A stretch of 64,000 nucleotides of DNA from Halioglobus sp. (GTDB lineage: Bacteria > Pseudomonadota > Gammaproteobacteria > Pseudomonadales > Halieaceae). The stretch is taken from NCBI GenBank assembly GCA_002699145.1, contig PABK01000017.1, positions 1 to 64,000 of the forward strand, in the 5' to 3' direction. Every line of letters begins with the position of its first letter. The stretch's first letter is position 1. Shown here in pieces: positions 34,905 through 42,713 of this stretch. Under the pieces are notes generated by a model. That model ran no database searches. It worked only from the letters and a program-made list of their open reading frames with translations, and was not told the origin of the DNA. Both the position numbers and the translations under genes were made by a program.

Positions 34905-34981
34905 AGGACTATAGCTCAGTTGGTTAGAGCGCTACCTTGACATGGTAGAGGTCCCCAGTTCGAATCTGGGTAGTCCTACCA
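34905..34981 (+). tRNA. tRNA-Val(GAC), with encoded CCA
   Basis: This is a 77-nt cloverleaf with acceptor stem AGGACTA/TAGTCCT, D-loop AGCTCAGTTGGTTAGAGC, anticodon stem CTACC/GGTAG with loop TTGACAT (anticodon GAC), T-loop GTTCGAATC and a 3' CCA encoded at 34979-34981. It reads GUC and GUU valine codons. A promoter precedes and a terminator follows directly. It stands at the edge of the dms cluster, a common site for genomic-island insertion. Confidence 0.97.
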
Positions 34982-34984
34982 AAC

Positions 34985-35016
34985 AAAAAAGCCCCCGCAT
35001 CGCGGGGGCTTTTTTG
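34985..35016 (+). terminator. rho-independent terminator after tRNA-Val
   Basis: A perfect GCCCCCGC/GCGGGGGC stem with a 3-nt loop (34991-35009) is flanked by A- and T-tracts, so it could work in both directions. It ends the tRNA transcript. Confidence 0.92.
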
Positions 35017-35365
35017 TTTGGCTGGGGTTGCTCTAGCGAGAACCGGCGCTCGACAGCACGGCACCCCGTGAGCGTTGTAACCAATCCATACAGCCCCGTA
35101 AATCCACCCAGGGCATCAGGGTTGCGGGCTTTTCCCTGCCGCCCCGCTGCCCTGAAGCCAGGCCCGCCCGGATCCACTGGCGTGACCGGGGAAAGTCAAC
35201 ATGATTTGACAGGGTATAAAAAGCGCGTACACTTTTTCGCAGACATGTTGTTTCAAAGGATTGGCAGCGTCCCGCTCTGATTGTAACAAGCCGGCAGTAC
35301 CCTTTATCAGCAGGATTGCTTTTGAAGTTTGGTAACCGGTCATCAGGGCGTGGCTTGAGCAGCGA
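35017..35365. other. gene-free stretch between tRNA terminator and the dms cluster
   Basis: About 350 bp without a convincing gene. The open frames here are short and one merely reads the tRNA backwards. It contains the promoter at 35206-35233 and a 5' leader of about 125 nt. I see no integrase remnant and no copy of the tRNA 3' end. Confidence 0.7.
35206..35233 (+). promoter_or_regulatory. sigma70 promoter upstream of the torD-family gene
   Basis: A consensus -35 TTGACA (35206-35211), a 16-bp spacer and TACACT (35228-35233) are present. The transcript would start near 35240, leaving a leader of about 125 nt before ATG 35366. No clear FNR box is seen here, unlike upstream of dmsE. Confidence 0.6.
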
Positions 35366-39509: not shown

Positions 39510-39526
39510 TAGATGAGAGGTGAGGA

Positions 39527-42088
39527 ATGGATCGTCGAGAATTTTTGAAACTGAGCGCCACCGCAGGAGCGGTCAGCGCCGTGAGCGCCTGCGGTGGGGG
39601 CAGTGGCTCGTCGCAAACTGTAACCCCGCCTCCGGCGCCTCCCGCGGAGACAACAAACTTCAGTTCCTGCCTGGTGAATTGCGGGTCGAACTGCCCACTG
39701 CGCATTGTCAGTAGTGAAGGTCGTATTGTCCGGGTCGAGACTGATTACACGGTAGAGGACAACTATGGTCAGCACCAGGTGCGCGCTTGCCTGCGGGGGC
39801 GCAGCATCAAACAGCGGACGTATGCCCCCGATCGGCTGAAGAATCCCCTGAAGCGGCGAGCAGGTGCGCCCCGGGGCTCGGGAGACTTCGAGGAAATATC
39901 CTGGGAGCAGGCTATCGCCGAAATAGCGGATAAGGTTACCGCCCTGCGAGCCGAGCATGGCCCCCGCTCGATTTACCACCACTACGGTTCGGGCGCCTAT
40001 TACGGCTTTTCAAGTAGCTCGTGCATCCAGCGCGCATTGCGCTTGTCAGGCGGACACCTGGGCTACTACGGAAACTACTCCTGGGCCGCCCTGGAGGTTG
40101 CCAGCCCGGCCACGTACGGCACTGGTGGCACAGGGGGAACCTATCTCAGTGAGGTCGCGAATTCGGATCTATTGCTCGGCTTCGGCTTCAACCCCTGGGA
40201 AATTCGCATGTCGGGGTCCGGTGAGCAATGGGACCTCATCAATGCCATGGAGTCGCGACAGAACAATGGCCTGCCCTTCAAGTTTGTCCTCGTCGACCCG
40301 CGTTACACTGACTCCAACGTGGGTAAGGCCGATGAGTGGGTGCCAATACGTCCGGGGACCGATGCGGCATTGGCCGAGGCGATCGCCTACGAAATGATCA
40401 GCTCCGGCTGGGTAGATGAAAACAGTCGGGAGTTCCTCGACGATCTCTGTATCGGCTACGACCGCGCCTCGCTGGAACAGGCGAAAATCGATAATCCCGA
40501 TTACGCGGACGTTATCGACCCGGATGAAAACTACCTGGATTATATCCTGGGGCAGGGCAAGTTCAGTGAACCCAAGACACCGGAATGGGCCGCGGCTATT
40601 ACCGGGGTTCCCGCCGCCGCGATCCGTTCGCTGGCGCAGGATGTCATGAATGCCGAATCGCCCTATATCATCACGGGTGCAGGCTGTAACAGGCAGGCCA
40701 ACGGCGAAGATAACATGCGTTCGCTGTACATGCTGCCGATTCTTACCGGCAAGATTGGCAATCCAGGTGTTAACAACGGCGAGTTGCCGCGCAATTTTGG
40801 CCTGTCCCGCTCGGGCATGTCGTCTGGCTCCAACCCGGTAGGCGTCAGCATCCCGTTCCACGTCTGGGCGGAAGCCATCGAGAATGGCGCGGATATGAGT
40901 GAAAAAACCCACTCTGTGCGAGGCCTGGCGGAAGGCGAAACGATAGGCACCAATATCAAGGCGGTATTTTCCTCGTCTGGTAATGCGCTGATCAACCAGC
41001 ACTCGGACATCAACGAAACCCGGCGTATCCTGCAACAGGAAGACCTCTGCGAGTTGATCGTGGTCACCGACTGCTGGATGACTTCATCGGCAAAATTCGC
41101 TGATTACGTATTGCCGGGCAGCACCTGGGTCGAGTCGAACGATCTGGCGAACGACAGTTACGCCTCCGGCCTTATGGGCTATATCACTTTTATGAGCACC
41201 AGTCTGGAGTCCTTGTACAACACCAAGAACCTTTACAACATCGGACTTGAACTGGCACGCAGGTGGGGTGTTGAAGAAGCTTATACCGAGGGGCGTACCG
41301 AGGATGAGTGGCTGGAATACCTCTACCAGGGTACGCGTGAGTCTAACCCTGACCTGGGCCTGCCTCCCACATACGCGGAGGCGCAAAAAATAGGTTTTTT
41401 CCGCAAGTTTGCCCCAGGCACCCACATAGCGCTGCAGGATTATGTGCAGGGCAACCTGGGCGGGGTCGCCGCGATCGGGAGCAGCAGCTGTGCAGACCCG
41501 GACGATCACGATTGCCTTCCCCGCCCGGCAATCATTGCGCGCAGCGATGAGCCCCCGAGACTGGAGACCCCTTCCGGCAAGATCGAAATATATTCACTGG
41601 ACTGGGCCAGGAAAGCTTCTGAATGGATTCCCGCGTCGGACGAGGAGATCGACCAGATTCGGCCTCTCGCGAAATACATCGTGCCCTGGCAAGGCTACGA
41701 GGATGCAGCCACGCGGGATGAGTTTCCATTCCAGGTGGTGGGCTACCACACCAAGGGACGCACACATTCCAGCTATCACAATGTGCCGAATCTGCGCGAG
41801 GCGGTAGAGGATGCTACCTGGATCAATCCCCTCGATGCGCGACGCCTGGGTATCGAACCTGGGCAGATGGTTACGCTGACCAGCCCCCGCGGGTCGCTGC
41901 GCACACGGGCCAAGATCACCCCGCGTATCATACCCGGCGTGGTGTCCATGGCGGAGGGCGCGTGGTATTCGCCCAGGCCGGACGGGGTCGATGAAGGCGG
42001 TTGCACCAACACCCTGACAAACTATCGGCCGATGCCTGTATCCAAGGGAAATCCCCAGCACACGATTCGCGTAAGAATTACGGTGTAG
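39527..42088 (+). CDS. dmsA: DMSO-reductase-family molybdopterin subunit, Tat lipoprotein
   Basis: This 853-residue catalytic subunit has the Tat motif DRREFLKL at residues 2-9 and a lipobox ending at Cys22, followed by a Gly/Ser and Pro-rich linker. Cys48, Cys52, Cys56 and Cys88 can bind a [4Fe-4S] cluster. Ser185 in GNYSW matches the Mo-ligating Ser of DMSO reductases. The C-terminal MopB domain has MVTLTSPRGSL. It likely reduces DMSO or a related S-/N-oxide or oxyanion outside the cell. The acceptor cannot be told from sequence. Confidence 0.92.
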   Translation: MDRREFLKLSATAGAVSAVSACGGGSGSSQTVTPPPAPPAETTNFSSCLVNCGSNCPLRIVSSEGRIVRVETDYTVEDNYGQHQVRACLRGRSIKQRTYAPDRLKNPLKRRAGAPRGSGDFEEISWEQAIAEIADKVTALRAEHGPRSIYHHYGSGAYYGFSSSSCIQRALRLSGGHLGYYGNYSWAALEVASPATYGTGGTGGTYLSEVANSDLLLGFGFNPWEIRMSGSGEQWDLINAMESRQNNGLPFKFVLVDPRYTDSNVGKADEWVPIRPGTDAALAEAIAYEMISSGWVDENSREFLDDLCIGYDRASLEQAKIDNPDYADVIDPDENYLDYILGQGKFSEPKTPEWAAAITGVPAAAIRSLAQDVMNAESPYIITGAGCNRQANGEDNMRSLYMLPILTGKIGNPGVNNGELPRNFGLSRSGMSSGSNPVGVSIPFHVWAEAIENGADMSEKTHSVRGLAEGETIGTNIKAVFSSSGNALINQHSDINETRRILQQEDLCELIVVTDCWMTSSAKFADYVLPGSTWVESNDLANDSYASGLMGYITFMSTSLESLYNTKNLYNIGLELARRWGVEEAYTEGRTEDEWLEYLYQGTRESNPDLGLPPTYAEAQKIGFFRKFAPGTHIALQDYVQGNLGGVAAIGSSSCADPDDHDCLPRPAIIARSDEPPRLETPSGKIEIYSLDWARKASEWIPASDEEIDQIRPLAKYIVPWQGYEDAATRDEFPFQVVGYHTKGRTHSSYHNVPNLREAVEDATWINPLDARRLGIEPGQMVTLTSPRGSLRTRAKITPRIIPGVVSMAEGAWYSPRPDGVDEGGCTNTLTNYRPMPVSKGNPQHTIRVRITV

Positions 42089-42101
42089 GGAGGAGGTTAG
42101 C

Positions 42102-42713
42102 ATGACGCAGTACGGTTTCTATATCGACACGGTCAAATGCACTGGGTGCAAGACCTGTCATGTTTCCTGCAAGGATCGCCAGGATCTGCCCGCGGATGTA
42201 AAATGGAGACGGGTGTACGAGTACGGGGGCGGCGATTGGGTAGAAAACGAGGACGGTACCGTTGAGCAAAGCGTGTACGCTTACTACCTTTCGGTAGGCT
42301 GTAATCACTGCGACAACCCGGTATGCGTGTCGGCCTGCCCGACCGGTTCAATGCATAAGCGGAACCTCGACGGCCTTGTCCACGTCGATCCCTCGATCTG
42401 TATAGCCTGTCGCGCCTGCGAGAGAGCCTGCCCCTACGATGCGCCGCAGTTTGACGAGCAAAAAGGCGTGATGACAAAGTGTGATGGATGTTACGACCGT
42501 GTCGCCGAGGGCGTGGGCGCCGTGTGCGTGGAGTCCTGTCCGCTGCGCGCACTCGAGTTTGCACCCATTGATGAGTTGCGCGAGAAGTATGGAGATAATG
42601 CGGACATCAACGGGCTGCCGGATTCGGGAATCACGCAACCCAACCTGGTTGTGCGCAAGAACCGCAATGCCGGCCGCGAAGATGGCGAATTCTGGAATTT
42701 CTTTGAGGTGTAG
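42102..42713 (+). CDS. dmsB: four-cluster [4Fe-4S] electron-transfer subunit
   Basis: This 203-residue ferredoxin-like subunit has four Cys groups: CTGCKTCHVSC, CNHCDNPVCVSACP, CIACRACERACP and CDGC...CVESCP. That makes four [4Fe-4S] clusters, as in DmsB/NrfC/PsrB. It passes electrons from the decaheme cytochrome to DmsA. There is no membrane anchor gene (DmsC), which fits an enzyme fed through DmsE/DmsF rather than directly from quinol. It has no signal of its own and would travel with DmsA by hitchhiking. Confidence 0.93.
   Translation: MTQYGFYIDTVKCTGCKTCHVSCKDRQDLPADVKWRRVYEYGGGDWVENEDGTVEQSVYAYYLSVGCNHCDNPVCVSACPTGSMHKRNLDGLVHVDPSICIACRACERACPYDAPQFDEQKGVMTKCDGCYDRVAEGVGAVCVESCPLRALEFAPIDELREKYGDNADINGLPDSGITQPNLVVRKNRNAGREDGEFWNFFEV

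What the first reader, a model, noticed from the sequence alone, without database searches (positions are those of the whole stretch)
34905..42713. Extracellular (outer-membrane-wired) DMSO-reductase-like system next to tRNA-Val
Seen: a TorD-type chaperone, an unknown ORF, a decaheme cytochrome with ten CxxCH, an MtrB-type barrel with CxxC, and DmsA and DmsB, in one strand directly after a tRNA gene with lower GC than flanks. Known: Shewanella dmsEFAB uses MtrA/MtrB-like parts to reach DMSO outside the cell. Inference: this organism respires an extracellular acceptor and acquired the set by transfer. Gene order differs from Shewanella (chaperone first) and no CymA or DmsC is present.
Basis: partly seen in the sequence, partly recalled or inferred. 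Interest (0 to 1): 0.75.

Follow-up and report, generated by a model that had tools for sequence, protein, structure and literature searches.

The report
Transferred cell-surface DMSO reductase gene cluster
A bacterium carries a complete gene set, apparently acquired from relatives of Ferrimonas and Shewanella and lying behind a tRNA gene, for passing electrons through its outer membrane to an enzyme that should reduce DMSO or similar molecules outside the cell; the machine itself is known, its host is not one of the usual ones.

Summary
Behind tRNA-Val (34905-34981) lie a TorD-type chaperone, a small ORF, a ten-CxxCH cytochrome, an MtrB/PioB barrel, DmsA and DmsB (35366-42713), at 57-59% GC (small ORF 64%) between neighbours of 67-70%. 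The unknown ORF is DmsH, so this is a full dmsGHEFAB set, the extracellular DMSO-reductase system known from Shewanella and Ferrimonas. The same four genomes, from the family of Ferrimonas senticii, head the list for E, F, A and B (and nearly so for G). No other genome of the 140 searched in the host's family, 17 congeners included, has this DmsA; congener left flanks match up to the tRNA 3' end or its terminator. Horizontal transfer is well supported, though no integrase or second tRNA end was found and no clean empty site. Elsewhere the genome has a NapC/NirT (CymA-type) cytochrome and its own MtrA-MtrB-MtrC locus. The chaperone-first order stands alone in none of 30 comparison clusters but occurs inside two tandem dms arrays. 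Most likely route: quinol, NapC/CymA-like, DmsE in DmsF, DmsB, DmsA, a Tat-exported reductase with a lipobox. Location and substrate (DMSO, iodate, bromate) are untested. New member of a known kind.

The parts
34905..34981 (+). tRNA-Val (anticodon GAC); left border and likely insertion site
   Evidence: ARAGORN, Rfam RF00005 71.8 bits; in 6 congener loci homology ends at the tRNA 3' end (4) or its terminator (2)
34979..35021 (+). 20-nt perfect inverted repeat (arms 34979-34998 and 35002-35021) with six T in the second arm; read here as the tRNA's terminator
   Evidence: the repeat finder I1, sequence; the terminator scan did not list it; also at the tRNA in L149 and L153
35206..35233 (+). sigma-70-like promoter match upstream of the chaperone gene (consensus match only)
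   Evidence: 5 found in the region against 3.7 (sd 1.8) in shuffles, so not above chance
35366..35998 (+). dmsG: TorD/DmsD-type chaperone for the molybdoenzyme
   Evidence: PF02613 81.7 bits; best relatives are dms-linked chaperones, 47-49% identical
36011..36430 (+). dmsH: small protein of unknown biochemical role
   Evidence: profile built from three DmsH without the window finds it at E 1.5e-4 among 4165 ORFs, next unrelated hit 0.56; alignment
36441..36454 (+). FNR/ANR-like site (one mismatch) 123-110 bases upstream of dmsE; weak evidence
   Evidence: only match with one mismatch in the window, but 0.52 expected by chance; no match with 0 or 1 mismatch upstream of 22 other DmsE-type genes
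36564..37517 (+). dmsE: decahaem c-type cytochrome
   Evidence: TIGR03508 285.7 over 192.2; ten CxxCH; inside the DmsE clade, own MtrA outside
37521..39509 (+). dmsF: MtrB/PioB-type outer-membrane barrel
   Evidence: TIGR03509 372 over 240.05; sister to DmsF of G526/G529/G537/G539, SH-aLRT 96
39527..42088 (+). dmsA: molybdopterin catalytic subunit with twin-arginine motif (RREFLK) and lipobox-like VSAC
   Evidence: TIGR02166 943.3 over 777.7; tree; N-terminus survey
42102..42713 (+). dmsB: iron-sulfur subunit, 16 Cys
   Evidence: TIGR02951 246.4 over 214.1; Cys count

Best explanation
This is a complete extracellular DMSO-reductase cassette, dmsGHEFAB, that reached this (probably gammaproteobacterial) genome by horizontal transfer from an unsampled relative of the Ferrimonas/Paraferrimonas/Shewanella group and lies behind tRNA-Val. 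Working model: DmsG (with DmsH) matures DmsA in the cytoplasm; DmsA leaves by the Tat pathway, probably carrying DmsB along, and its lipobox-like cysteine would be acylated and help tether DmsAB to the outer membrane; quinol electrons pass through a NapC/CymA-type tetrahaem cytochrome (the one found lies beside the genome's own mtr genes) to decahaem DmsE, through DmsF across the outer membrane, to DmsB and the molybdenum site of DmsA, where DMSO or a similar oxidised compound is reduced outside the cell. Shown here: gene content, family membership, phylogeny, foreign composition, absence from kin, tRNA border, signal motifs. Inferred: expression, surface location, electron route, substrate. 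The chaperone-first order is most simply read as the G-H | E-F-A-B middle of a tandem dms array.
For: Four core proteins pass curated NCBIfam cut-offs. The same four genomes (G529, G539, G537, G526) head the list for E, F, A and B; for G they share the top five with G543, which also ties for A: DmsA 65-67%, DmsB 72-74%, DmsE 57-60%, DmsF 41-43%, chaperone 47-49%. Trees: DmsA in a 14-row clade with Ferrimonas and Paraferrimonas rows (100), DmsE in the DmsE clade (99) apart from the genome's own MtrA, DmsF sister to those four (96). At E <= 1e-120 DmsA is in 1 of 140 genomes of the family (1 of 78 of the more complete ones), 17 congeners lacking it, against 64 of 116 genomes at E <= 1e-150 in the family of Ferrimonas senticii. 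GC and codon use foreign. In 6 congener loci the left flank is homologous up to the tRNA 3' end or its terminator; the right flank HAD-acyltransferase, GPAT, glycerol-3-phosphate dehydrogenase keeps its order in 4 congeners. Congener G127 has a second copy of the last 19 tRNA bases plus terminator about 140 bases on, as integration at this tRNA would leave. The window DmsA has a Tat motif and lipobox-like cysteine like its clade; 9 of 9 DmsA outside the clade used as controls lack the latter, 7 of these 9 being followed by DmsC.
Against: No integrase among the genes between tRNA and HAD gene, no second tRNA end in the window at up to 3 mismatches, and no clean empty site: the gene upstream of the HAD gene differs between congeners, in G126 and G128 the tRNA-luciferase-like-dehydrogenase block is arranged otherwise, and in one congener locus (L147) no tRNA lies beside the kinase. 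Window branches are long (DmsA 0.43, DmsE 0.83, DmsF 1.02), so the donor is unsampled or the transfer old. Within the DmsA clade the window's place is unresolved, and DmsE groups with the four genomes at 91 only. The FNR-like site is no better than chance. The ABC-transporter and Crp-like genes next to dmsE in L104 and L107 did not come along. Nothing shows expression or activity.
Confidence: 0.78

Rival explanations
1. Same machine, other main substrate: the surface DmsAB works mainly on iodate, bromate or another oxidised compound, helped by the genome's own MtrCAB, as proposed for S. oneidensis.
For: In S. oneidensis dms mutants reduce iodate and grow on DMSO more slowly, and MtrCAB is proposed to help by removing peroxide (PMC11302344, passages); bromate is tied to DMSO reductase (PMC9468665, search listing only). 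This genome has both DmsEFAB and an MtrA-MtrB-MtrC locus.
Against: The iodate function is called fortuitous (PMC9732548, passages). Sequence does not separate the substrates.
Confidence: 0.3
2. Vertical inheritance with loss in all other sampled members of the genus and family.
For: The system is patchy even in the Ferrimonas senticii family (64 of 116 genomes).
Against: None of 139 other family genomes, 17 congeners among them, has this DmsA at E <= 1e-120 (62 of the 140 are less complete or more contaminated); in 390 genomes of the order the 7 others found at E <= 1e-140 are 44-45% identical and fall outside the clade; foreign GC and codon use.
Confidence: 0.04
3. A silent passenger, or a reductase that works in the periplasm instead of on the surface.
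For: No convincing regulator site; type II secretion, by which DmsAB is said to reach the surface in Shewanella (PMC9048795, passages), was not looked for in this genome; the lipobox-like cysteine also occurs in DmsA of clusters without E and F.
Against: All six frames are intact, ten haem motifs and 16 DmsB cysteines are kept; DmsE and DmsF are kept with DmsAB.
Confidence: 0.15
4. Assembly artefact: a piece of another organism joined into the contig.
For: The genome is a 61-contig assembly with 2.17% estimated contamination.
Against: The stretch lies inside a 193-kb contig, and genes on both sides have homologues in the same order in congeners.
Confidence: 0.03

Closest known systems
dmsEFABGH of Shewanella oneidensis MR-1; type I dms cluster of S. 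piezotolerans WP3
   Same: Same six gene families including DmsG and DmsH; decahaem/barrel conduit feeding a molybdenum reductase; no DmsC in the cluster (PMC11302344, PMC5013071, passages)
   Different: Order G-H-E-F-A-B instead of E-F-A-B-G-H; host of another family; DmsA 49% identical to rows beginning MERRSFLK (L118-L120), which I take for Shewanella from recall
SO4362-SO4357 operon of S. oneidensis MR-1
   Same: Gene order implied by locus numbers is G-H-E-F-A-B (PMC11302344, passages; strand inferred)
   Different: SO4358 is 36% identical to MR-1 DmsA (PMC9732548, section 10); SO4357-SO4362 sequences were not compared here
   Same: Nearest relatives of E, F, A, B and, with G543, of G
   Different: H stands apart upstream and G follows B; in L104 and L107 ABC-transporter genes of modABC type and a Crp-like gene lie between H and dmsE
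MtrCAB (own C24 locus; Group 6 of PMC8805035)
   Same: MtrA and MtrB share the decahaem and barrel families with DmsE and DmsF
   Different: Ends in a ten-CxxCH MtrC-type cytochrome instead of DmsAB; own MtrA and MtrB fall outside the DmsE and DmsF clades
DmsABC of Escherichia coli
   Same: DmsA and DmsB families (DmsA 42% identical)
   Different: dmsC follows dmsB and no dmsE or dmsF lies in the region; DmsA without lipobox-like cysteine

Membership tests
DmsEFAB(GH) extracellular DMSO reductase | DmsE-family decahaem cytochrome | tested here: met
   TIGR03508 285.7, cut-off 192.2; ten CxxCH; DmsE clade, support 99
DmsEFAB(GH) extracellular DMSO reductase | MtrB/PioB-type barrel next to it | tested here: met
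   TIGR03509 372, cut-off 240.05; DmsF clade
DmsEFAB(GH) extracellular DMSO reductase | DmsA and DmsB of the DMSO/selenate family in the same cluster | tested here: met
   TIGR02166 943.3, cut-off 777.7; TIGR02951 246.4, cut-off 214.1
DmsEFAB(GH) extracellular DMSO reductase | DmsG (TorD-type chaperone) | tested here: met
   PF02613 81.7, cut-off 22.2; nearest relatives are dms-linked chaperones. The DmsD equivalog cut-off is not reached (117, cut-off 162)
DmsEFAB(GH) extracellular DMSO reductase | DmsH | tested here: met
   Window-free DmsH profile, E 1.5e-4 among 4165 ORFs; identity to other DmsH only 13-28%
DmsEFAB(GH) extracellular DMSO reductase | Placement of A, E and F with the known systems in trees | tested here: met
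   (SH-aLRT support only)
DmsEFAB(GH) extracellular DMSO reductase | DmsA on the outer-membrane surface; growth on DMSO | not testable with these tools
   Tat motif and lipobox-like cysteine are consistent but location and activity need experiment
DmsEFAB(GH) extracellular DMSO reductase | A CymA-type quinol dehydrogenase in the cell | tested here: met
   One PF03264 protein with four CxxCH in the genome, 99.4 bits, cut-off 24.1; that it serves DmsE is inferred
E. coli-type DmsABC | DmsC anchor beside DmsB | tested here: not met
   Next gene after dmsB is a HAD-acyltransferase; DmsC was not searched genome-wide
MtrCAB | MtrC-type multihaem cytochrome in the cluster | tested here: not met
   None among the genes from 35366 to 44688; present at the separate C24 locus
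Genomic island at a tRNA | Foreign composition, absent from kin, border at a tRNA 3' end | tested here: met
Genomic island at a tRNA | Integrase gene and flanking repeat of the tRNA end | tested here: not met
   No second copy of the 24-base tRNA end in the window at up to 3 mismatches; no integrase among the genes between tRNA and HAD gene

The most novel reading that the evidence does not exclude
The whole outer-membrane-wired reductase, chaperones included, moves between families as one self-contained cassette that plugs into a recipient's existing CymA/MtrCAB equipment; this recipient, having both DmsEFAB and MtrCAB, would be an extracellular DMSO and iodate reducer outside Shewanella and Ferrimonas, and the cassette's gene order records its origin from the middle of a tandem dms array.
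Probability: 0.3. Interest if true: 0.6.

Novelty: new member of a known kind. Interest (0 to 1): 0.43.

Why it matters
[quoted passage not shown] A genome of another family with both sets widens the possible players in DMSO and iodate cycling and shows that the cassette can move whole. It also raises a testable point about anchoring: DmsA of this kind carries a Tat motif followed by a lipobox-like cysteine, unlike the DmsABC-type DmsA compared here.

Tried and rejected
Right-hand att repeat: none found. Empty site in congeners: not clean. CRP sites: 12 in the window against 15 expected, none within 300 bases upstream of the window dmsE or dmsG. FNR site: one at 1 mismatch, 0.52 expected; matches with 2 mismatches occur upstream of some relatives' dmsE, none with 0 or 1. 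Structure of DmsH from a two-sequence alignment: all-helical, pLDDT 63, pTM 0.48; too weak for a fold search, which I did not run. DmsH as a divergent TorD: hhalign probability 0.2%, like the DmsB and DmsE controls (0.4 and 0.2). Naming the host: a glycerol-3-phosphate dehydrogenase search matched only records under 60% identity; UvrB is best at 74% to Pseudomonas aeruginosa, hence probably a gammaproteobacterium; Halieaceae is only an inference from the mtr locus make-up compared with PMC8805035.

Limits of the counts: the class sample (this genome alone of 369) scored only two candidates per genome at E <= 1e-150 and is weak; the order sample also scored two. The family search scored six, and 78 of its 140 genomes are at least 90% complete. 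DmsA tree: the window plus 32 of 63 hits, chosen by me; DmsE tree: the window plus 39 of 43 hits, two duplicates and two weak hits dropped; DmsF tree: the window plus 34 of 61 hits (at least 560 aa, over 70 bits). All trees have SH-aLRT support only, and the DmsA tree warned of two long rows (L021_1905, L123) that meet. That the family of Ferrimonas senticii as held also contains Shewanella is my inference from the recalled N-terminus of S. oneidensis DmsA. The neighbour check did not resolve what follows dmsB in L160 and showed a second DmsA after the first in L155, so DmsC is shown for 7 of the 9 control DmsA.
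Full report
What is there. The window is the first 64 kb of a 193-kb contig (C33) of a 5.2-Mb, 61-contig genome. Behind tRNA-Val(gac) at 34905-34981 and a perfect inverted repeat read as its terminator (34979-35021) six genes lie on the + strand: 35366-35998, 36011-36430, 36564-37517, 37521-39509, 39527-42088 and 42102-42713. Family models name five of them: TorD-type chaperone (PF02613), DmsE decahaem cytochrome (TIGR03508), MtrB/PioB barrel (TIGR03509), DmsA (TIGR02166) and DmsB (TIGR02951), the last four over curated NCBIfam cut-offs. 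DmsE has ten CxxCH and DmsB 16 cysteines. The genes have 57.0-58.9% GC (the small ORF 64.0%) against 69.6% and 67.5% for the two neighbours, and all six are among the 11 least host-like of 48 genes in codon use (three of the other outliers belong to a second low-GC stretch at 49.8-54.6 kb).

The unknown ORF is DmsH. In the alignment of 13 sequences a Q and an L are invariant and W, F-x-G-A-T, V and a C-terminal N-M nearly so; identity to the window is 13-27%. It is not a divergent TorD by profile comparison. In S. oneidensis deletion of dmsH lowers DMSO and iodate reduction, and its role is unknown (PMC11302344, passages). The window therefore holds the complete set G, H, E, F, A, B.

Relatives. 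A scan of named genomes with DmsA returned Paraferrimonas haliotis and Ferrimonas senticii. In the family of the latter, as the tool groups it, 64 of 116 genomes have a DmsA at E <= 1e-150. The best relatives of E, F, A and B are in G529, G539, G537 and G526 (DmsA 65-67%, DmsB 72-74%, DmsE 57-60%, DmsF 41-43%); for the chaperone (47-49%) the same four and G543 are on top, and G543 ties for A. The DmsA tree puts the window in a 14-row clade (support 100) with Paraferrimonas, Ferrimonas and these genomes, its place inside unresolved; rows with the MERRSFLK start, seven DmsA from the window's own order, E. coli and Photobacterium fall outside. The DmsE tree places the window in the DmsE clade (99), sister to the four genomes at 91, with the genome's own MtrA in the other part. 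The DmsF tree makes the same four its sisters (96). Window end branches are long (0.43, 0.83, 1.02), so the immediate donor is not in the sample.

Transfer. DmsA was found at E <= 1e-120 in this genome only of 140 in the family, 17 congeners among the rest. The order sample gave this genome and seven others of 390, all 44-45% identical. Seven congener loci hold the fructosamine kinase; six of them (L148-L153) have tRNA-Val beside it, one (L147) does not. In these six, DNA homology to the window ends at the tRNA 3' end in four (L148, L150, L151, L152) and at the end of the terminator in two (L149, L153). In G127, the congener with the most similar right-flank gene (79%), a second copy of the last 19 tRNA bases and terminator lies about 140 bases downstream of the first, as integration at this tRNA would leave. 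The right flank (HAD-acyltransferase, glycerol-3-phosphate acyltransferase, glycerol-3-phosphate dehydrogenase) keeps its order in the four congeners examined, none of which has this DmsA. Against a textbook island: no integrase among the genes, no second tRNA end in the window, no clean empty site, and in G126 and G128 the block of tRNA, luciferase-like gene and acyl-CoA dehydrogenases is arranged otherwise.

Gene order. Among 40 fetched loci of the Ferrimonas senticii family plus L020 and L021 there are 30 complete E-F-A-B clusters outside the window; 29 have the chaperone next downstream and 3 have a chaperone next upstream, all 3 in tandem arrays: G-H in L177 and L180, G alone in L178 (gaps up to 2.5 kb allowed). 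None stands alone as GHEFAB. The window order is thus what one would get by taking G-H of one unit and E-F-A-B of the next from such an array; this is an inference. The locus numbers of the second S. oneidensis operon (SO4362 G, 4361 H, 4360 E, 4359 F, 4358 A, 4357 B; PMC11302344, passages) imply the same order, with the strand inferred; SO4358 is 36% identical to MR-1 DmsA (PMC9732548, section 10). In the closest relatives H lies upstream of dmsE at a distance; in L104 and L107 genes of an ABC transporter of modABC type and a Crp-like regulator lie between (Pfam for L104, where the Crp-like domain is just under its cut-off and 'molybdate' is my reading).

How it probably works. Of 71 distinct DmsA sequences examined with a loose pattern, 61 have a lipobox-like cysteine shortly after the twin-arginine motif, the window (RREFLK ... 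VSAC) included; the ten without are nine sequences outside the clade (E. coli, Photobacterium, seven of the order; DmsC follows in 7 of these nine) and one with a doubtful start codon. Clusters without E and F have the cysteine too, so it does not by itself prove a surface location. The survey speaks of the twin-arginine signal in DmsA and, as to lipoproteins, of MtrC (PMC9732548, section 10 and passages). One search for DmsA with lipoprotein, Shewanella, twin-arginine and outer membrane gave six papers, of which I read passages of two and saw no statement that DmsA is a lipoprotein; I did not see the original 2006 paper. The rest of the model follows Shewanella: quinol to CymA, to DmsE, through DmsF to DmsAB (PMC11302344, PMC9048795, passages). 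This genome has one NapC/NirT protein. It lies at C24 beside an eight-CxxCH cytochrome, a UbiA-type protein and MtrA, MtrB and MtrC-type genes with GC3 of 0.84-0.88. That make-up resembles the Group 6 mtr clusters described mostly from Halieaceae, with an inner-membrane tetrahaem and a periplasmic octahaem cytochrome (PMC8805035, passages); the hemH neighbour reported for most of them was not seen here. The serine in YGNYS aligns with the YGDYS segment of E. coli DmsA; that this serine binds molybdenum is recalled, not tested.

Regulation. A match to the FNR consensus with one mismatch lies 123-110 bases upstream of dmsE, but 0.52 such matches are expected in the window and relatives do not share it. 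I give it little weight.

What is new. In the listings (15, 20 of 40, 20 of 30 and 11 papers shown) I saw no paper that places dmsEFAB in a host of this kind; the survey of genomes with both dmsEFAB and mtrCAB lists only Ferrimonas and Shewanella (PMC9732548, abstract, sections 10 and 13, passages). Two listed papers report single dms genes elsewhere (dmsA, dmsE or dmsF in sediment bacteria, PMC11748539; DmsE-family cytochromes without DmsA/B in Ferrovaceae, PMC13390463; passages). The finding is a horizontally acquired member of a known system in another lineage, with a rearranged gene order and a recipient that already owns the partner pathway.

Noticed in passing
window 49795-54624: A second low-GC stretch (about 51-58% GC) with a 410-aa gene without Pfam match, an FG-GAP repeat protein (685 aa) and a sulfatase with SGSH C-terminal domain; the first two have the least host-like codon use of the window.
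   Followed up: partly
L017 (G000:C24:94000-112000) 6166-14851: The genome's own mtr locus: eight-haem cytochrome, NapC/NirT tetrahaem, UbiA-type protein, MtrA, MtrB and a ten-CxxCH MtrC-type cytochrome.
   Followed up: partly
L153 944-1216 (G127:C245): Duplicated tRNA-Val 3' end plus terminator about 140 bases apart in a congener, a likely integration scar at the same tRNA.
   Followed up: partly
L108, L177, L178, L180: Tandem dms units in the Ferrimonas senticii family (ABG-ABG, FABGH-EFABG, FABG-EFABBGH, EFABGH-EFABB).
   Followed up: partly
L104 and L107, about 1.1-5 kb: DmsH, ABC-transporter genes of modABC type and a Crp-like regulator lie upstream of dmsE in near relatives, hinting that molybdate uptake may be linked to the system.
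   Followed up: partly
71 DmsA sequences: A lipobox-like cysteine follows the Tat motif also in DmsA of clusters without DmsE/F (for example L105, L116, L121, L168), so those enzymes may be lipoproteins too.
   Followed up: no
L155 1462-3903 and 3927 onward (G837): Two DmsA genes in tandem in a genome of the window's order.
   Followed up: no
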